A stretch of 64,000 nt of DNA from Castor canadensis (Eukaryota > Chordata > Mammalia > Rodentia > Castoridae), in assembly GCF_047511655.1 (NCBI RefSeq), contig NC_133386.1, forward strand, positions 79,301,501 through 79,365,500, given 5' to 3'. Made by a program: the position numbers and the translations under genes. Positions 6,030 through 64,000 of this stretch are shown one piece after another. Below the pieces are notes generated by a model that ran no database searches, was not told where the DNA came from, and saw only the letters and a list, made by a program, of their open reading frames with translations. The first letter of the stretch is position 1, and each line of letters starts with the position of its first letter.

Positions 6030-6130
6030 TGTAAATTAAATTCACTTTAAATAAATAAATAAATTTTATTTATTTATTATAAATTCACTTTAAATAAATA
6101 AACTGAAAACTTAAAAATAAATAAATGAAT
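6030..6130. repeat. AT-rich direct and inverted repeats
   Basis: A 22-bp unit starting 'aaattcactttaaataaat' occurs at 6,038-6,059 and again at 6,081-6,102. Between them (TAAA)n runs into its own inverted form, so the centre is palindromic. Probably slippage-driven. Confidence 0.8.
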
Positions 6131-10123: not shown

Positions 10124-11524
10124 TTTTTAGGGTAGAAAGATTTTCTTTATTAATGACCCCAACCGTATTTCTTTAGATACAGGACTTTTGAACTCAAATA
10201 CTTAGAAGAAAACAAGTTAAGATTGCATTATCCTGCAACTCGTTACCAGTAACATATTGCAAAGCAAAACAGTTTGGAAAAGAGAGTGGGAGGGAAGAGA
10301 AGTGAGGGAGGGAAGATAAAAGAAAAGGAATTAAGTTCATCAAGTGGAATTCTTTTTTAAATTCTTGGGAACTATGAAGTCCTTGCAAGCACAGCTCGTT
10401 TCTGCAGATTATTTTCCAAATGCGTACAAAATGGAGCCCAAACGGAGAATCCCTTAAGAACCTGGAGAGGTGCAACATGAAGGGCTACGATTATCCAGTA
10501 GCAAGCGTTCCAGCCTTCCATCGCCAACACTTCCTCCTCTGTTCCCAAGAGTTAGTGGGATGAAAACGTCTTCCCCGTGATTGTTTTCATTTCTTTTTTC
10601 TCAGCATCTGGGCGTGTACGGTTGAGCACCTTAAGGAAGTCCGATGTTTTTGCCCGCATACGTGTGTGAATATAGGCCTTAGAGCACTTGATGTGCAGGT
10701 AGTCCCGGAATGTGTGGATCAGGTTGATGGTGTTGTCTCGAGCACTGGCATTGGTGTGGCGAGGGAACAGCACAAAGGTGATGTAGCCAATGTTGTCGCC
10801 CACAGCAGCATCCATGTCTTTTAGTTCCAGAGGAGATTCCCTGTGGCTAAAAAGGACCTGGGGGGCTGTGTGGCTGGCTCTGCGTCCTTCTTTGAATTCC
10901 TGCATGAACACCTTTCCAATGACCACATCGTCGTCATCTTTAAACACTGTGCTGAAGACTACCGTGACTCTGTCCTTTTTAGATTCAACATACATGGTCT
11001 CATCATCCCTATAATGGATAACTGCCCTGTTCTTGCCTTCCTTGCCCTCTTCTTGGAATTGGAAGTATTTCTCAAAGACAGAGACAAAACAATGTCGTTT
11101 CAACATGCCAGCCTGATGCACAATAGAATCCTTAGATACAGGCAGATTTTCAAGGTCATATAGCAAAGAAACATTGTATCCTGATTCTGGGTTTACCAAG
11201 AAATTTCCACATACCCTCTTTAATAACTCATCAGCAGCATGTGCCTGAAGTTCCTTGTAGAATTTCAAAGAAATACTGACCATCACTTTTGTTTTGTCTC
11301 CATTAGGATTTGAAATATGATAGAGGACCCCATCAAAATCTGCAAATGTTACTTATACTGCTTCCGGTTTGTTTCTGGCGGCCGCGTTCTCGAACTTGAG
11401 CGCGAGCGTCTCCTCGATGATGCGGTTGTTCACCTCCAGCAGGATCACGGCTGGCCGCGGCTGGCCGCGGCTGGCCCCGAAGCCTGAACCCGCCTGCCCA
11501 GCCGCCGCCGCCGCCTCACCGACC
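10116..11524 (-). pseudogene. ARPC2: Processed pseudogene of ARPC2 (Arp2/3 complex subunit 2, p34-Arc)
   Basis: The parent gene encodes the 300-residue p34 subunit, which with ARPC4 forms the structural core of the Arp2/3 actin-nucleating complex. The minus strand carries an intronless copy: 5' UTR (11,449-11,524), coding region 11,448-10,552, 3' UTR, an AATAAA (complement of 10,146-10,151) and a 13-A tail (10,116-10,128). Recognisable blocks include [61 protein letters not shown] and the C-terminus [12 protein letters not shown]. Lesions: the start codon is GTG (11,446-11,448), codon 32 is TAA (11,353-11,355, Glu in the family), and two codons are missing in DYLHIKC. From the next Met a 244-codon frame stays open to the normal stop, but it lacks the N-terminus. 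Flanking 14-bp repeats (10,110-10,123 and 11,525-11,538) mark L1-mediated insertion. No intron or promoter is retained. Confidence 0.96.
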
Positions 11525-19916: not shown

Positions 19917-20400
19917 TGAGCAATCTTCATTAATGATCAAGTAATTAATTTACCTCCTGGATACATACTATCAAGCATATGTGCCATCAATGGCAAGATC
20001 TCCTTCCCCATAATTTAGAGGGAAATAAAAATAGCTAAATATCTATCACCACTAAAATGTTATCAAATTTAATATTCTTTACACAATCCCTTTTCCACTG
20101 AAGGGACGAGGCCCTTTAAAACAATATCCTGCCTAAAGCAAACTTTTGAGCATGTCACTAAAAAAAGTGATCCTTTATTTTCTGAGTAAATTCTCTTATG
20201 AAAACATTAAATAGTCAAATACTGTAGCCAAGTAAATACATTTCTAAGCAAATTCAAGTTATCTGATAATTTACTCCAAATTTTTCTTATTTTTTCAATG
20301 GAAAAAAATGAATTAGATCTTTAGATGGTAAGTGAAATCATAGAGACCCAAATATATGCAACATAAACTCTTCATTGGCATCAAAACTCCCTTGTAGCTG

Positions 20401-20620
20401 TTTTTTTTTTTTTTTGGTGGGACTGGGGTTTGAATTGAGGATTTTATGCTTGCAAAGTAGGTGCTTTGCCACTTAAGACAGACCTCAGTCCATTTTGCTC
20501 CAGTTATTTTAGAGATGGGGTCTTATGAAATATTTCCCTGGGCTGGCCTCGAACCTCAAACCTGCCAATCTCAGCTTCCCAAGCAGTTAGGATTACAGGT
20601 GGTTCACACTGACACACCAC
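20401..20620 (-). repeat. Composite SINE, antisense
   Basis: T15 run, then 'ggtgggactggggtttgaat', 'gcaaagtaggtgctttgcca', and a B1-like complement ending 'aggattacaggtggttcaca'. Its 5' end directly abuts the tRNA-half insertion. Confidence 0.8.
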
Positions 20621-20638
20621 TCAATTCTATCCTTTTAA
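20621..20638. repeat. Target-site duplication, left copy, of the tRNA-half insertion
   Basis: 'tcaattctatccttttaa', repeated exactly at 20,673-20,690. On the minus strand the pre-insertion site reads ...TTT/AAAAGG..., a good L1 endonuclease target. Confidence 0.92.
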
Positions 20639-20672
20639 GAGTCTCATGCTCTACCGACTGAGCTAGCCGGGC
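20637..20672 (-). pseudogene. Tailless retro-insert of the 5' half of tRNA-Lys(CTT)
   Basis: On the minus strand, 20,672 down to 20,639 reads as the first 34 nt of mammalian tRNA-Lys(CTT): acceptor strand gcccggc, TA, D-stem gctc, D-loop with gtcgg, gagc, and anticodon strand tgaga then ctc. No mismatch is seen against the sequence I remember. It stops in the anticodon loop. Identical 18-bp repeats flank it, or 16-bp if the last two T's (20,637-20,638) are counted as tRNA positions 35-36. There is no CCA, no 3' half and no poly(A). The internal A box is present but the B box is absent, so it is not a tRNA gene. Confidence 0.9.
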
Positions 20673-20690
20673 TCAATTCTATCCTTTTAA
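20673..20690. repeat. Target-site duplication, right copy, of the tRNA-half insertion
   Basis: Exact 18-bp copy of 20,621-20,638 with no substitutions, suggesting the event is not very old. Confidence 0.92.
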
Positions 20691-42121: not shown

Positions 42122-42130
42122 AAATCTTGA

Positions 42131-44760
42131 TAACAACAAACACCATGGAAGTCCAGGAAATCATCAGAGACTACTTTGAGAACCTATATTCAAATAAATT
42201 TGAAAATCTTAAAGAAATGGACAGATTTCTAGATACATATGATCATCCAAAACTGAACCAAGAGGAAATTAATCACCTGAATAGACCTATAACACAAAAT
42301 GAAATTGAAGCAGCAATCAAGAGTCTCCCCAAAAAGAAAAGTCCAGGACCTGATGGATTCTCTGCTGAATTCTATCAGACCTTTAAAGAAGAACTGATAC
42401 CAACCCTCCTTAAACTGTTCCATGAAATAGAAAGGGAAGGAAAACTGCCTAACTCATTTTATGAAGCTAGTATTACACTCATCCCAAAACCAGGCAAAGA
42501 CACCTCCAAAAAGGAGAACCATAGGCCAATCTCCTTAATGAACATTGATGCAAAAATCCTCAACAAAATAATGGCAAACCGAATTCAGCAACACATCAAA
42601 AAGATTATTCACCACGACCAAGTAGGCTTCATCCCAGGGATGCAGGGGTGGGTCAACATACGAAAATCAATAAACGTAATAAACCACATTAACAGAAGCA
42701 AAGACAAAAACCACTTGACCATCTCAATAGATGCAGAAAAAGCCTTTGATAAGATCCAACATCATTTCATGATAAAAGCTCTAAGAAAACTAGGAATAGA
42801 AGGAAAGTTCCTCAACATTATAAAAGCTATATATGACAAACCTACAGCCAGCATTATACTTAATGGAGAAAAACTGAAACCATTCCCTCTAAAATCAGGA
42901 GCCAGACAAGGATGCCCACTATCTCCACTCCTATTCAACATAGTACTGGAATTCCTAGCCAGAGCAATTAGGCAAGAAGAAGGAATAAAAGGAATACAAA
43001 TAGGTAAAGAAACTGTCAAAATACCCCTATTTGCAGACGACATGATCCTATACCTTAAAGACCCAAAAAACTCTACTCAGAAGCTTCTAGACATCATCAA
43101 TAGCTATAGCAAGGTAGCAGGATATAAAATCAACATAGAAAAATCATTAGCATTTCTCTACACTAACAATGAGCAAACAGAAAAAGAATTTATGAAAACA
43201 ATTCCATTTACAATAGCCTCAAACAAAATCAAATACCTAGGTGTAAACCTAACAAAAGATGTGAAAGACCTCTACAAGGAAAACTATAAACTTCTAAAGA
43301 AAGAGATTGAGGAAGACTATAGAAAGTGGAGAGACCTCCCATGCTCATGGATTGGTAGAACCAACATAGTAAAAATGTCGATACTCCCAAAAGTAATCTA
43401 CATGTTTAATGCAATTCCCATCAAAATTCCAATGACATTCATTAAAGAGATTGAAAAATCTACTATTAAATTTATATGGAAACACAAGAGGCCACAAATA
43501 GCCAAGGCAATACTCAGTCAAAAGAACAATGCAGGAAGTATCACAATACCTGACTTCAAACTATATTACAAAGCAGTAACAATAAAAACAGCATGGTACT
43601 GGCACAAAAACAGACATGAAGACCAGTGGAACAGAATAGAGGACCCAGATATGAAGCCACACAACTATAACCAACTTGTCTTTGACAAAGGAGCTAAAAA
43701 TATACAATGGAGAAATAGCAGCCTCTTCAACAAAAACTGCTGGGAAAACTGGTTAGCAGTCTGCAAAAAACTAAAACTAGATCCATGTATATCACCCTAT
43801 ACCAAGATTAACTCAAAATGGATCAAGGATCTTAATATCAGACCCCAAACTCTTAAGTTGATACAGGAAAGAGTAGGAAATAGTCTGGAGTTAGTAGGTA
43901 TAGGTAAGAACTTTCTCAATGAAACCCCAGCAGCACAGCAACTAAGAGATAGCATAGATAAATGGGACCTCATAAAGCTAAAAAGCTTCTGTGCATCAAA
44001 AGAAATGGTCTCTAAACTGAAGAGAACACCCACAGAGTGGGAGAAAATATTTGCCAACTATACATCAGACAAAGGACTGATAACCAGAATATATAGGGAA
44101 TTTAAAAAACTAAATTCTCCCAAAACTAATGAACCAATAAAGAAATGGGCAAGTGAACTAAACAGAACTTTCTCAAAAGAAGAAATTCAAATGGCCAAAA
44201 AACACATGAAAAAATGCTCACCATCTCTAGCAATAAAGGAAATGCAAATTAAAACCATGCTAAGATTCCACCTCACCCCTGTTAGAATAGCCATCATCAG
44301 CAACACCACCAACAACAGGTGTTGGCAAGGATGCGGGAAAAAGGAACCCTCTTACACTGTTGGTGGGAATGTAGACTAGTACAACCACTCTGGAAAAAAA
44401 TTTGGAGGCTACTTAAAAAGCTAGACATCGATCTACCATTTGATCCAGCAATACCACTCTTGGGGATATACCCAAAAGCTGTGACACAAGTTACTCCAGA
44501 GGCACCTGCACACCCATGTTTATTGCTGCACTATTCACAATAGCCAAGTTATGGAAATGGCCAAGATGCCCCAGCACTGACGAATGGATTAAGAAAATGT
44601 GGTATCTATACACAATGGAATTTTATGCAGCCATGAAGAAGAATGAAATGTTATCATTCGCCGGTAAATGGATGGAATTGGAAAACATCATTCTGAGTGA
44701 TGTTAGCCTGGCCCAAAAGACCAAAAATCGTATGTTCTCCCTCATATGTGGATATTAGAT
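42131..44760 (+). pseudogene. L1 ORF2 (reverse transcriptase half), open for about 750 codons
   Basis: ORF2p is the endonuclease/reverse transcriptase that copies L1 and non-autonomous RNAs at nicked genomic DNA. The endonuclease half is missing through 5' truncation. The open frame 42,127-44,379 has, in order, [10 protein letters not shown] (about residue 70), IPKPGKD (119), [11 protein letters not shown] (165), the motif-A stretch [10 protein letters not shown] (200), [11 protein letters not shown] (261) and the catalytic FADD (302-305, codons from 43,030). The thumb and C-terminal domains follow. Two single-base losses, near 44,335-44,342 and near 44,478, push the C-terminal Cys-rich part into frames seen at 44,319-44,543 and 44,516-44,758. 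The apparent TTG start is not real; the frame simply runs out of the truncated end. It cannot retrotranspose by itself. Confidence 0.93.
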
Positions 44761-58369: not shown

Positions 58370-58917
58370 ATTGTGTTACTCAGTTTTCTGTTAACTGTAA
58401 CAATTACCTGAGATAATCAATTTACAAAGAGAAAAGTTTTATTTTGTTTCATACTTTTGGAGGTTTTATGTCATTGTCAGATGTTTCATTTGTTTTAGGG
58501 TTTGTGGCAGCATAGTACATCATGGTGGAGAACACATGGCAGAGTAAGCTGCTCACCTATGGGAGGCAAAACAGAGTGAGAAGGGACCCAATATCCCATA
58601 AGAATTTGTCCCAAATGACTGAAAGGCCCTACCACTCAAGAGTTTCCACAAATTATTTTGCCGAAACTATTTTCTGCTGGGTATTGAGGGGGTAGTGGGG
58701 AGAGGGAGGGGGCGGAGTGGGTGGTATGGGAGGGGGTGGGGGCAGGGGGGTGAAATGATCCAAGCCTTGTATGCACATATGAATAATAAAAGAAAAAAAA
58801 ATTAAGCCAAAAAAAAAAAAAAAAGAGTTTCCACAACCTCCCAGTAGAAGCAATCTGGGGATCAAGCCTTTGACATATGAACCTTTGAGGGAGGCACTCC
58901 TGATCCGAACAATAGCA
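58370..58917 (-). repeat. ERVL-MaLR-type LTR, antisense, split by an L1 tail
   Basis: 'tgtgttactcagttttctgt', 'aattacctgagataatcaat', 'gtggcagcatagtacatcat' and 'cagagtaagctgctcaccta', continuing after the insertion with 'cctcccagtagaagcaatct' and 'tttgacatatgaacctttga'. The L1 tail occupies 58,652-58,822. Confidence 0.75.
58652..58822 (+). mobile_element. Very short (about 170 bp) young L1 tail insertion
   Basis: From 'tttctgctgggtattgaggg' through the G-rich tract to 'cacatatgaataataaaaga' and an A-tail interrupted by 'ttaagcc'. Flanked by an exact 14-bp repeat 'aagagtttccacaa' at 58,638-58,651 and 58,823-58,836. Same subfamily as the 42-45 kb and 51.4 kb insertions. Confidence 0.92.
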
Positions 58918-59054: not shown

Positions 59055-62000
59055 CTTTTATTTTGTAGTTTTTTAAATAAAATTTTTGTTAGGACATATT
59101 AGTTATACAGGGGGTTATTCATACTGACCATTCCAATTAGACTTATATTGTACATTATTTACATTTCTGCCTTTGTCTCTCCCCTTCAATCCCCTCCCCA
59201 CCCTACTTAGAGTAATTGCAAGAGGTTTTTTAGTTCTGTTTCACATATATATATATATATGAAGTCCATCACCCATATACCATCACCTTAATCTCCTCTC
59301 TTCACCCTCCCCTCTCTCATAAGTACTCCCCCACACTATGCCTATTGTTCAGTCCTGATTTTTGTTATTAATTAAGTTGATGTTCACAGGGGTGTCTCAG
59401 TGTATGCCCTCTCTGGGTATGTTTTGCTTCGATCTGTTCAGTACCTTCGAATACTCTCCCTTACCCCATTACCTCCCACTCCCAATTTTTCAACAGTTTT
59501 CAACACATATGCTTATGTCCGCTACCTTTACATCTTATGGTATACTATATTACTGATGCTCTATTGTTCACTTTCTTTCCCTTTTTCTCCAAGTTCTATA
59601 GAGTAGTTCCACTGTCACAAACATGTTCTACATATGAGTTTGTATATGATCATGATTGATTTTGTGTGTATGTTTATTTTTGGATCTATCTTCCACGTAT
59701 GAGAGAAAACATGCAGCTTTTGTGTTTCTAATCTTGGCTAACTTCACTTAGCATGATGTCCTCCAACTGCCTCCATTTACCTTCAAACCTCATGTCATTA
59801 TTCCTTGTGGCTGAGTGGTACTCCTTTGTGTATATGTACCACAATTTCGTGATCCATTCCTCAGTTGTAGGGCATCTGGGTTGTTTCCAGAGCTTGACTA
59901 TTGTGAATGGTGCTGTGATGAACATCATTGTACAGGTGTTTCCATTGTATCCTGTCTTACACTCTTTTGGGTAGATGCCCAGGAACAGTATCACTGGATC
60001 ATATGACAGTTCTGTCTTCAGGTTTTTGAGGAATCTCCATACTGCTTTCCACAGGGGTTGTGGTAACTTGCATTTCCCACTAGCAATGTATAAGGGTTCC
60101 TGTTCTGTCACATCCTTGCCATCATTTGTTGTTGTTAAGACCCTTGATTATGGCCATTCTAACTGGGGTGAGATGAATTCTAAGCTTTGTTGTGCTTTGC
60201 ATCTCTTTTATAATCAGGGAAGTTGAACACTTCTTCATCTATTTATAGGCTCTTTGTACTTCTTCACTTGAGAATTCCCTGTTTAATTCATGTGCCCATT
60301 TTTTCATTGGGGTGTTGATTCTTTAGGACTGAGTTTTTTGAGTTCCCTGTATATATCAGATAAGTAGCTGGCAAAGATTTTCTCCCATTCTGTGGGCTGT
60401 CTCTTGAGTCTGGTGACTGTGTCCTTTGCTGTGCAGAAGCTCTCTAGCTTGATGCTGTCCCATTTGTTCATTGTTTCTCTTAAATGCTGAGCCTTTTGGG
60501 TTCTGTTGAGGAAGTTGTTCCCTGTACCTCTCTGTTCCAGTGTATTTACTACTGCTTCTTGGAGTTGTTTCAGAATTTCAGGCCTTGTATTAAGGTCTTT
60601 GATCCACTTTGAGTTGATTTTGGTACAGGGTGAAAGATGGGAATCTAGTTTCAGTCTTCTACATGTGCATATCCGGTTTTCCCTGCAGCATTTGTTGAAG
60701 AGGCTGTTTTTTCTCCATTGTGTGTTTTGGGCTACTTTATCAAAGATCAGTTGGCATAGATGTGTGGGTTTATGTCTGGATCTTCTATTTTGATCCATTG
60801 GTCTTCCTGTCTGTTTTTTTTCTTCCTCCTCCTACCTTTGTTTTGCCAATACCATGCTGCTTTTATTATTATGATTCTGTAGTGTAGTTTGAAGTTGAGT
60901 ATTGTGATGTCTCCAGTATTGGAATTTTTGCTCATAATTGCTTTGGCTATTCAAGGTTTTTATGTGTCCATATGTATTTCAAGATTGTTTTTTCTATTTT
61001 TGTGCAAAACATCATTGGAATTTTGGTAGGGATGTGTTGAACATGTAGATTGCTTTTGATAGTATGGCCATTTTCACAATGTTGATTCTACCAATCCACG
61101 AGCATGGAAGGTCCTTCCATCTTCTGATATCTTCTTCTATTTCTCTCTTCAGTGGTTTATAGTTTTCATTAGAAAGGTCTTTGGTTTCGTTTGTTAAATT
61201 TATTCTGAGGTATTTTATTTTTTTTTGAGGCTATTGTAAATGGGATTATTTCCTTGATTTCTTTCTCAGTTTGTGTGTTGTTGGTATGTAGAAAAGCTAC
61301 TGATTTCTGTATGTTAACTTTGTATTTTGCTACTTTGTCAAAAGACTATGACTTCTAGCAGTTTTTTGGTAGAGTTTTGGGGGTCTCTTACGTATAGGAT
61401 CATGCTATTTGCGAATAGGGATAGTTTCACTTCTTCCTTCCCTATTTGAATTCTTTTTATTTCTTGCTCTTGTCTTACTGCTCTGGCTTGGAATTCCAAA
61501 ACTATATTGAATAGGAGTGGAGAAAGTGGACAGCCCTGTCTCATTCCTGATTTTAAGGGGAATGGTTTCTGTTATTCTCCATTTAATATATTGTTGGCTT
61601 TAGGTTTGTTATATATAGTATTTATTGTATTGAAGAACATTCCTTCTATTCCTAGTTTCTCCAGTGATTTTATCATGAAAGGGTTTTGGATTTTGTCAAA
61701 GGCTTTTTTGGCATCCATTGAGAGGATCATGTGGTTTTTGTCCTTCCTTCTGTTTATATGCTGCATTATATTCATGGATTTACATATGTTGAACCATCCT
61801 TGCATCCCTGGCATGAAACTGACTAGGTCATGGTATATTATTTTTTTGACATGTTTTTGAATTCTGTTTGCTGGTATTTTGTTTTGAATCTTTGCATCTT
61901 TATTCATTAAAGATATTGGTCTATAATTCTCTTTTCTGGTCACATCTTTGTTTGGTTTCAGACTGAATGTAATGCAGGCTTCATAGAATGAGTTTGGTAG

Positions 62001-64000
62001 TGTTCTTTCTCTTTCTAATTCCTGTAAAAGTTTGAGGAGTTTTTAAATCCTTTGAAGATTTGGTAGAATTAGACCATGAATCCACCCAGTCCTGGGCACT
62101 TCTTTGTAGGGAGACTCTTTATTACTGCTTCAATTTCTTTGCATATAATAGGACTATTTAGGTGGTTAATATCCTCTTGGTTCAATTTTGGTTGGTTATA
62201 TGCATCTAGAAATTTATCCATTTCATCTAGATTTTCCAGTTTACTTGAATATAAGTTTTACTCTCTAATGATTCTCTGGATTTTGTTGGTATTTGTGGTT
62301 ATGTCCCCTTTTTCTTCTCTGATTTTATAAATTTGGGTCTTCTCCCTTCTCTGTTTTGTCATGTTGGCTAAAGGTTTGTCAATCTTGTTAATCTTTTCAA
62401 AGAATCAACTTTTGGTTTCACTGATTCTTTGTATAGTTTTCTTTGTCTTGATCTTATTGATCTCAGCCCTGATCTTTGTTATTTCTATCTGCCTGCTGGT
62501 TTTGGGTTTGGTTTGTTCTAGTTTTTCTTGGAGCTTAAGGTGCTTATTAGGTTGTTTATTTGAGAGGTCTCTGTTTTTTTATAATGTAGACACTTATAGC
62601 CATAAACTTTCCCCTTAGCACAGCCTTTGCTATTTCTCACAGATTCTGGCAGGTTGTCTTTTCATTTTCATTGGATTCTAGGTACTTTCTGATTTCTTCT
62701 TTTATTACTTCAGTCACCCATTTTTCAGCAATGTGTTGTTCAGTCTCAATGTGTTTGAATATTTTCTTCTTTTTTGTTGAGGTCTAGTTTTATTCCGTTG
62801 TGGTATGATATGATGCATGGGGTTATTTCAATTTTGTTGAATTTGTTGAGACTGGTGTTGTGTCCTAAAATATGATCTATTTTTGACAAGGTTCCATGAG
62901 CTGCAGAAAAGAATGTGTATTGCCTAATTTTTGGGTGAAATACTCTGTAGATATCAACCATGTCACTATGTCTATTTGGTCTAATGTGTTGAGTAGATTT
63001 GAAGTTTCTTTGTTGATCTTTTGTCTGGATGACCTATCTAATTGTGCAGTATTCAGGTCTCCCACCATCACTGTGTTAACATTTATCTGTGCCATTAGGG
63101 CCATTAGAGTTTTTTCGATGTAGATATGTGTCCCTGAATTTGTGCATCTATGTTAATGATTGATATTTCCTCTTGATGAATTGTTCCTTTCATTAATATG
63201 AAGTGACCTTAATTGTCTCTTCTGATTGACTTCAGGCTGAAGTCTACTTTGTCAGATATGAATATTGCTAATCCTGCCTGCTTATGGGGTCCATTTGCTT
63301 GGAAAACTTTTTTCCAGCCTTTGACTCTAAGCCAAAGATGAGTCTGGTGTAAGCAACATAAGGTTGGGTCTTGTTTTTTAACCCAGTTTCCTATTCTGTG
63401 TCTTTTTATTGGGGTATTGAGGTCATCTACATTCAGTGTTAATATTGGAGGTGCTGTTGTTTCCAGTCATTCTTGTTCACCTGTTGTTCAGTTTTACCTA
63501 TTCCTTGTTCTACTTGCTCAAAAGGGTTTATTCTTTCTTGAGTCTTCCTGTCTCATTCTAGTTTCTTCTATATGTAAAAGTCCTTTAAATATCTTCTGTA
63601 GGATTGGCTTGGTTGTCACAAATTCCTTTGGTTTTTTCTTGTTCTGAAAGGTTTTAATTTCTCCTTCAATTAGGATGGTTAGTTTTTCTGGGTAGACAAG
63701 CCTTGGTTGACAGTTGCTTCCTTTCAGTGACTGAATTATGTCTTTCTATGACCTTGTTGCAGTTAGAGTTTGAGTTTAGAAATCTGCTGTTATTCTAATG
63801 GGTTTGCTTTTATATGTGTCTTGTCTTTTTACTTTTGCAGCTTTCAGAATTCTTTGTTCTGTGTGCTGAGTGTTTTGATTATGGTGTGTCTTGGGATGTT
63901 TCTGTTTTTGTCCTGATGGTTTTTTGTTCTGTAAGCTTCCTGCATCTGGGTGTCTCTGTCTTTCTCAAAGTTAGGGAATTTTTCTGCTATTATTCTATTG
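59055..64000 (-). mobile_element. Long antisense L1, continuing past the right edge
   Basis: A 3' UTR (59,055-59,740, 'ttatacagggggttattcat') is followed on the minus strand by a complete-length ORF2 region (about 63,470 down to 59,740) and ORF1 C-terminal text from about 63,500 to the window end ('tctccttcaattaggatggt', 'ttctgctattattctattg'). No large internal deletion is evident in ORF2. The 5' part lies outside the window. Confidence 0.85.
59728..63470 (-). pseudogene. L1 ORF2 remnant, full-length but frame-broken
   Basis: Recognisable minus-strand frames cover most of ORF2. 61,572-61,943 holds [19 protein letters not shown] and the motif-A text ([14 protein letters not shown]). 61,338-61,544 begins [13 protein letters not shown] and has FANSMILYV where the family has FADD, so both catalytic aspartates are replaced. 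60,304-60,798 is the C-terminal domain and 59,728-60,111 the extreme C-terminus ([24 protein letters not shown]). The start is near 63,470 (complement of 'ttcagtgttaatattggagg'). Stops and frameshifts between these blocks show it is dead. Confidence 0.85.

What the first reader, a model, noticed from the sequence alone, without database searches (positions are those of the whole stretch)
20621..20690. Retro-inserted 5' half of tRNA-Lys(CTT) with perfect 18-bp target-site duplication and no tail
Seen: the minus strand carries exactly the first 34 nt (up to 36-38 if shared bases are counted) of tRNA-Lys(CTT), ending in the anticodon loop, between identical 18-bp repeats at a TT/AAAA-like site. 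Known: tRNA halves arise by anticodon-loop cleavage (e.g. angiogenin), and tailless retropseudogenes of small RNAs have been described in mammals. Inference: a cleaved 5' tRNA half, not a whole tRNA, was the template, and its 3' end (ctctt) base-paired with the nicked target. That would be a genomic fossil of a tRNA half in the germline. The insert also lies right at the 5' end of an older SINE.
Basis: partly seen in the sequence, partly recalled or inferred. Interest (0 to 1): 0.78.

Follow-up and report, generated by a model that had tools for sequence, protein, structure and literature searches.

The report
Retro-inserted front half of a tRNA
A copy of the first half of a lysine tRNA was pasted into this mammalian genome, most likely by the LINE-1 copying machinery; similar copies are common there and most look copied from unfinished tRNAs rather than from cut tRNA halves.

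Summary
On the minus strand, nt 1-38 of tRNA-Lys(CTT) match without a mismatch (20635-20672), between perfect 19-bp direct repeats (20620-20638, 20672-20690) at an L1-type TTT|AAAA site, with no tail. It is a tailless retropseudogene, a kind described by Noll 2015. The "fossil of a cleaved tRNA half" reading is weakened by a survey of the host genome. Of 180 examined places matching the 5' ends of tRNA-Lys, -Gly, -Glu and -Val, 108 were truncated copies with a TSD; 85 of these end in the anticodon loop. (1) 69 of the 85 carry 3-9 extra 5' bases, which recur among independent copies and in some equal the 5' flank of host tRNA genes: unprocessed pre-tRNA templates. (2) Targets match the loop bases: summed overlap 190 against 61 (maximum 90) for swapped targets. 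Both favour nicked DNA priming inside the loop of a longer tRNA. Against: 9 of 20 Glu copies show no overlap. The window copy has no leader and its RNA end lies anywhere from 34 to 38, so for it a cleaved half is not excluded. New member of a known kind.

The parts
20639..20671 (-). unambiguous insert: nt 2-34 of tRNA-Lys(CTT)
   Evidence: exact match to the tRNA sequence of PMC8216282
20635..20672 (-). largest possible extent of the tRNA match: nt 1-38, ending at the last base of the anticodon loop
   Evidence: exact 38-nt match
20672..20690 (-). 5' copy of the target-site duplication (19 bp), at a TTT|AAAA site; its last base is shared with tRNA G1
   Evidence: direct repeat, 100%
20620..20638 (-). 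3' copy of the target-site duplication (19 bp); its first four bases, TTAA, are shared with tRNA nt 35-38
   Evidence: direct repeat, 100%
20400..20619 (-). older dimeric SINE (B1-like plus ID-like part; type recalled, not tested) ending in an A-tail, directly 3' of the insert's second TSD copy; flank only
   Evidence: diverged partial copies elsewhere in the window; no SINE TSD detectable

Best explanation
A tailless retropseudogene made by LINE-1 target-primed reverse transcription. L1 endonuclease nicked the strand opposite TTT|AAAA. The freed 3' end (...TTTT, or ...TTTTAA) annealed to UUAA (nt 35-38) in the anticodon loop of a tRNA-Lys(CTT) molecule. Reverse transcription ran from the loop to the 5' end, and resolution of the staggered break gave the 19-bp duplication. 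Shown here: the insert, the TSD, the missing tail, the TTAA overlap, and the population-level leader and target-matching evidence. Inferred: that L1 did it, and that this copy's template reached beyond nt 38. The copy stops before box B and a terminator and most likely has no function. Its template had a mature 5' end; most other loop-ending copies came from RNA with a 5' leader.
For: Exact tRNA match, 19-bp TSD, TT|AAAA site, no tail. 108 TSD-bearing truncated copies from four tRNAs, 85 ending in the anticodon loop. Overlap between target and loop totals 190 against a swapped-target mean of 60.6 and maximum of 90 in 5000 draws; the target consensus follows the loop (Lys TTTAA|AA, Gly and Glu weakly TTTCA|, Val TTCAC|A). 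Leaders of 3 nt or more in 69 of 85. Flanks equal to host gene flanks: 9 nt L175 = gene L212, 7 nt L185 = gene L177, 8 nt L024 = gene L017 (5 of them outside the TSD), GACGC in 8 of 20 Glu copies = genes L206/L207. Of 19 loop-ending copies without overlap, 16 still carry a leader. Overlaps outside the loop: L009 (5), L072 (6), L100 (8, running to nt 46). Open L1-type reverse-transcriptase frame and a P34-Arc retrocopy in the same window. Noll 2015 argues for internal priming and gives the site consensus TT/WAAAAWW; here the site reads TT/TAAAAGG.
Against: Overlap cannot tell internal priming from annealing of the 3' end of an RNA cut just after nt 37-38. In 3 of 20 Lys and 4 of 32 Val loop-ending copies nt 38 is not supplied by the target, as expected if some RNAs ended there. 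19 of 85 show no overlap, 9 of them among the 20 Glu copies; 8 of these 9 end at C36, and the buffalo table lists a 36-nt Glu half with just that end (69,277 reads). The survey does not test T-loop ends fairly, because matches to nt 58 or beyond were set aside. 9 of the 22 true insertions ending outside the loop have no overlap. The window copy has no leader.
Confidence: 0.75

Rival explanations
1. Fossil of a cleaved tRNA half: an anticodon-loop-cut 5' half of mature tRNA-Lys(CTT), 34-38 nt long, was the template, placed at the nick by its 3' end.
For: This copy starts at mature nt 1 without a leader and its RNA end may lie at 34-38. The exact 34-nt 5' half of this tRNA is the top entry (556,095) of the tRNA table for buffalo corpus luteum (PMC5639113). 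PMC13174262 proposes cleaved halves for tRNA/L1 chimeras, typically nt 1-37. 8 of 20 loop-ending Glu copies end at C36 without overlap, where a 36-nt Glu half is known.
Against: 69 of 85 loop-ending copies have 5' leaders, so they were not mature halves; of the 9 Glu copies without overlap, 8 have one. Targets match loop bases far above the swapped control. Copies with leaders under 3 nt do not differ in overlap (mean 2.31 in 16 against 2.22 in 69).
Confidence: 0.2
2. Member of a tRNA-Lys-derived SINE family, or the broken rest of a tRNA gene or full-length tRNA pseudogene, later truncated.
For: A full-length tRNA-Lys query finds many diverged tRNA-Lys-like matches, mostly over about nt 5-63 at 84-94% identity, in the host (40 of 152 candidates scored).
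Against: The copy is exact over nt 1-38 and stops at a TSD. Similar copies end at the same loop at unrelated sites, each with its own TSD and without a tail.
Confidence: 0.03
3. Capture of a tRNA cDNA or fragment during repair of a double-strand break, not target-primed.
For: Short overlaps also occur in end joining (general knowledge).
Against: A 19-bp TSD at an endonuclease-type site; TSD median 15 in the 85 loop-ending copies; 5' ends at, or a few bases before, mature nt 1.
Confidence: 0.02

Closest known systems
Tailless retropseudogenes (Schmitz et al. 2004, not held; Noll et al. 2015, PMC5322556)
   Same: 3'-truncated small RNA without A-tail, TSDs, L1-type site, end in a loop, complementarity of 2-18 nt between RNA and target; tRNAs processed or unprocessed (as Noll 2015 reports)
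   Different: Nothing in kind. This copy lacks a leader, as a minority of the host's loop-ending copies do.
tRNA/LINE-1 chimeric insertions (PMC13174262)
   Same: tRNA part usually about nt 1-37, TSDs of 9-19 bp, endonuclease motif
   Different: Here no L1 sequence is joined. That paper suggests cleaved halves; the leader evidence here speaks against this for most stand-alone copies in this host.
5' tRNA halves (34-nt tRNA-Lys half in PMC5639113)
   Same: Same first 34 nt
   Different: Those are RNAs with a cut end; most loop-ending insertions here come from RNA with a 5' leader.

Membership tests
Tailless retropseudogene (Noll 2015) | 3'-truncated copy of a cellular RNA | tested here: met
   nt 1-38 of 73 of tRNA-Lys(CTT), no mismatch
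Tailless retropseudogene (Noll 2015) | flanking target-site duplications | tested here: met
   19 bp, 100%; none of 16 nt or more in 60 simulated windows
Tailless retropseudogene (Noll 2015) | no oligo(A) tail | tested here: met
   TSD follows the tRNA match directly
Tailless retropseudogene (Noll 2015) | L1-type target and RNA/target complementarity of 2-18 nt | tested here: met
   TT/TAAAAGG, 4-nt overlap TTAA
Tailless retropseudogene (Noll 2015) | truncation in a single-stranded region | tested here: met
   end between nt 34 and 38, in the anticodon loop
Tailless retropseudogene (Noll 2015) | empty orthologous site in a relative | not testable with these tools
   The genome search states that the host has no relatives held
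Fossil of a cleaved 5' tRNA half | mature 5' end (no leader) | tested here: met
   window copy has none; but 69 of the 85 loop-ending copies have one
Fossil of a cleaved 5' tRNA half | 3' end at a known cut site, independent of the target sequence | tested here: inconclusive
   end ambiguous 34-38 here; in the class targets match the loop, but 8 of 20 Glu copies end at C36 without overlap
tRNA-derived SINE | internal promoter boxes A and B, a body and tail | tested here: not met
   ends at nt 38 at the latest, no tail; similar copies lie at unrelated sites with different leaders

The most novel reading that the evidence does not exclude
Templates were RNAs already cut in the anticodon loop (for this copy a mature tRNA-Lys half; for most other copies leader-bearing pre-tRNA 5' pieces cut near nt 36-38), annealing to the L1 nick by their 3' ends. 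The genome would then be a readable archive of germline tRNA cleavage, including cleavage of unprocessed pre-tRNAs.
Probability: 0.2. Interest if true: 0.75.

Novelty: new member of a known kind. Interest (0 to 1): 0.4.

Why it matters
Print holds two readings of tRNA-half inserts: internal priming within whole RNAs (Noll 2015, for tailless copies) and cut tRNA halves (the 2026 Cell Genomics paper, for tRNA/L1 chimeras). The host genome gives a simple test, reading the 5' leader and the target-loop match of each copy. It points to leader-bearing templates, so such inserts should not be used as a record of germline tRNA halves without checking for leaders.

Tried and rejected
Rejected: tRNA gene, SINE family, and chance repeat. 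I tried to show that the insertion reused the SINE's own target site: the alignment of the SINE's two flanks is no better than shuffled (p 0.45), so this stays a guess. An exact search of viral contigs for the 36-mer found nothing. Schmitz 2004 is not held; I know it only through Noll 2015 and recall. A first overlap test counted only left extension in its null; I replaced it, which counts both sides and gives a weaker but still clear excess. Of the 108 TSD-bearing copies, L165 is a tandem duplication rather than an insertion and L152 has an A-run; neither is among the 85. On re-checking I saw that 8 of the 9 Glu copies without overlap end at C36, the end of a known 36-nt Glu half; I lowered the best explanation from 0.78 to 0.75 and raised the cleaved-half rival from 0.17 to 0.20 for that.

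Full report
OBSERVATION. The minus strand of 20620-20690 reads, 5' to 3': TTAAAAGGATAGAATTGAG, then tRNA-Lys(CTT) nt 2-34, then TTAAAAGGATAGAATTGAG. The two 19-bp repeats are identical. The tRNA match is exact for nt 1-38 against the sequence printed in PMC8216282 (one passage seen; match). G1 and TTAA (nt 35-38) are each shared with a repeat, so the copied RNA ended somewhere from nt 34 to nt 38, or reached further with nt 35-38 annealed to the target. The pre-insertion site is TGTCCTTT|AAAAGG. No tail lies between the tRNA and the second repeat. In 60 simulated windows no exact, non-low-complexity direct repeat of 16 nt or more at 25-250 spacing occurred. ARAGORN and Rfam find no tRNA at this place.

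WHAT IT IS. The five sequence features that I took from Noll et al. 2015 for tailless retropseudogenes are met (PMC5322556; abstract, passages and the Results and Discussion section seen). [quoted passage not shown] It argues for internal priming, from 5S rRNA and U2 data. A 2026 paper on L1 chimeras (PMC13174262; passages and sections 11 and 18 seen) finds tRNA pieces of about nt 1-37 joined to L1 and suggests cleaved halves. The exact 34-nt 5' half of this tRNA exists as an abundant RNA in a mammal (buffalo corpus luteum, PMC5639113, 556,095 reads, top of the tRNA table; passages). So the kind is known, and its template is the open point.

GENOME-WIDE TEST. The host genome is held as G000 (2.81 Gb). 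I searched it with 22-nt 5' ends of four tRNAs, up to 3 mismatches: Lys 50 places, Gly 119, Glu 88, Val 112. Counted were all 50 Lys places, 50 of the 54 Gly places with at most 2 mismatches, 40 of the 46 Glu and 40 of the 49 Val places with at most 1 mismatch: 180 places. The 4, 6 and 9 places left out of these classes were fetched later and printed, not counted; the more diverged Gly, Glu and Val places were not fetched. Each place was tested for a TSD, with upstream flanks of other places as the null; the 99% level of that null was 8-9.5, and a score of 10 was required. Places whose match runs to nt 58 or beyond were set aside as gene-like: 6 Lys, 17 Gly, 1 Glu, 3 Val. Of the 153 truncated places, 45 had no accepted TSD: 15 Lys, 13 Gly, 13 Glu, 4 Val. 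With a TSD: 29 Lys, 20 Gly, 26 Glu, 33 Val, together 108. Ending in the anticodon loop: 20, 13, 20 and 32, together 85. One of the 108 (L165) is a tandem duplication, not an insertion.

TARGET FOLLOWS THE LOOP. In the 85 copies the number of target bases that also match the tRNA at the junction sums to 190. When each tRNA end is joined to targets of the other tRNAs, counting matches on both sides of the joint, the mean is 60.6 and the maximum of 5000 draws is 90. Copies with 2 or more shared bases: Lys 15 of 20, Gly 11 of 13, Glu 10 of 20, Val 25 of 32. Nineteen share none: 3 Lys, 2 Gly, 9 Glu, 5 Val. The Glu set is weakest. Eight of its nine zero-overlap copies end at C36, most of them reading CTCTC|TC..., and a 36-nt Glu half with that end is listed in the buffalo table. 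That speaks for cut RNA in these cases; slippage in the CUCU repeat would also explain the extra TC (inference). Eight of the nine carry a leader, so they were not halves of mature tRNA. Of the 22 true insertions ending outside the loop, 8 have overlaps of 3 nt or more (L009 5, L072 6, L100 8, running to nt 46, which a half does not have) and 9 have none.

LEADERS. Between the 5' TSD copy and tRNA nt 1, 69 of the 85 copies have 3 or more extra bases: 16 of 20 Lys, 10 of 13 Gly, 18 of 20 Glu, 25 of 32 Val. The same flank ends recur: ACGC in 8 of 20 Glu, AGTT in 10 of 32 Val, GCCG in 5 of 32 Val (binomial chance below 1e-7 each after multiplying by 256). Several equal the 5' flank of host tRNA genes: 9 nt in L175 (gene L212), 7 nt in L185 (gene L177), 8 nt in L024 (gene L017; 5 of them outside the TSD), and GACGC in eight Glu copies (genes L206, L207). 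Flanks shared for 4 or more nt with a fetched full-length copy: 4 of 20 Lys, 4 of 13 Gly, 8 of 20 Glu, 5 of 32 Val, so 21 of 85. For the others no source gene was among those fetched; the Lys flank CGGC, for example, stayed unmatched. So most templates had a 5' leader, that is, were pre-tRNAs not yet trimmed by RNase P. The 16 copies with measured leaders under 3 nt show the same overlap (2.31 against 2.22), and some of these hide a leader under a chance extension of the TSD (e.g. L138, L005).

MECHANISM. L1 endonuclease nicks at TTTT/AA-like sites, the 3' end pairs with two to a few bases of the exposed anticodon loop, and reverse transcription runs to the 5' end of the RNA. The loop is an accessible single-stranded part of a folded tRNA, which would explain the clustering without cleavage (inference). 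Against this: overlap fits equally an RNA cut just behind nt 37-38, and in 3 of 20 Lys and 4 of 32 Val copies nt 38 is not supplied by the target. The survey does not test T-loop ends, because matches to nt 58 or beyond were set aside.

THE WINDOW COPY. It is one of a minority without a leader. Its template had a mature 5' end. If the nick was the canonical TT|AAAA, U35 and U36 came from the RNA, so a 34-nt half does not fit and a 36-nt half or a longer RNA does; with a nick two bases earlier a 34-nt half would fit. No substitution is seen in the tRNA part or between the TSD copies, which puts divergence below about 4% (rule of three), so it is probably younger than the neighbouring SINE, whose partial matches elsewhere in the window are 69-86% identical. 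That it sits at the SINE's 5' end may reflect reuse of the SINE's own target site, but no SINE TSD could be shown.

SURROUNDINGS. An open L1-type reverse-transcriptase frame of 751 codons (42124-44379) and a P34-Arc frame without introns (10552-11352, minus) show that L1-type retrotransposition has been at work here. Dimeric B1/ID-like SINEs suggest a rodent, perhaps a beaver relative; this is recall, not a test.

NOVELTY. New member of a known kind. My searches of the held library (of only 25 of 191 listed) showed no title or abstract that uses 5' leaders of loop-ending copies to decide between the two templates; I opened only the papers named above and passages of PMC5059674, PMC2237900 and PMC12025293. 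The library lacks most subscription journals, including Schmitz 2004, which may have done so.

Noticed in passing
10552-11352 (-): Stop-free frame of 266 codons matching the Pfam family P34-Arc (Arp2/3 34-kD subunit), without introns: probably a processed retrocopy (ARPC2, name recalled).
   Followed up: partly
42124-44379 (+); 61572-62042 (-): L1-type reverse-transcriptase frames (Pfam RVT_1); the first is open over 751 codons, so this copy may be fairly young.
   Followed up: partly
58638-58836 (+): 14-bp direct repeats AAGAGTTTCCACAA around a 171-bp G-rich, A-tailed insert; looks like a short 5'-truncated L1 3' end (guess).
   Followed up: no
6037-6102: 23-bp direct repeat around an AT-rich 20-bp spacer; probably a local duplication in AT-rich sequence.
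   Followed up: no
L066/L150 (host C5) and L070/L129 (host C8); L010 (host C3): A tRNA-Glu 5' part directly followed by a tRNA-Lys(TTT) 5' half and an AGTTCCTT-containing tail at two places; L010 has the Lys half and a like tail without the Glu part. A composite repeat built from tRNA pieces, unexplained.
   Followed up: no
host genome: Of the 10 exact hits to the 22-nt tRNA-Lys(CTT) 5' end only one (L016) is gene-like; the other nine are truncated copies. No gene with the Lys flank CGGC was found among the fetched places.
   Followed up: partly
L126, L137, L140, L154, L157: tRNA-Glu copies with an extra TC at the junction (CTCTC|TC...), as if the reverse transcriptase slipped in the CUCU repeat of the anticodon loop, or as if the RNA ended at C36.
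   Followed up: partly
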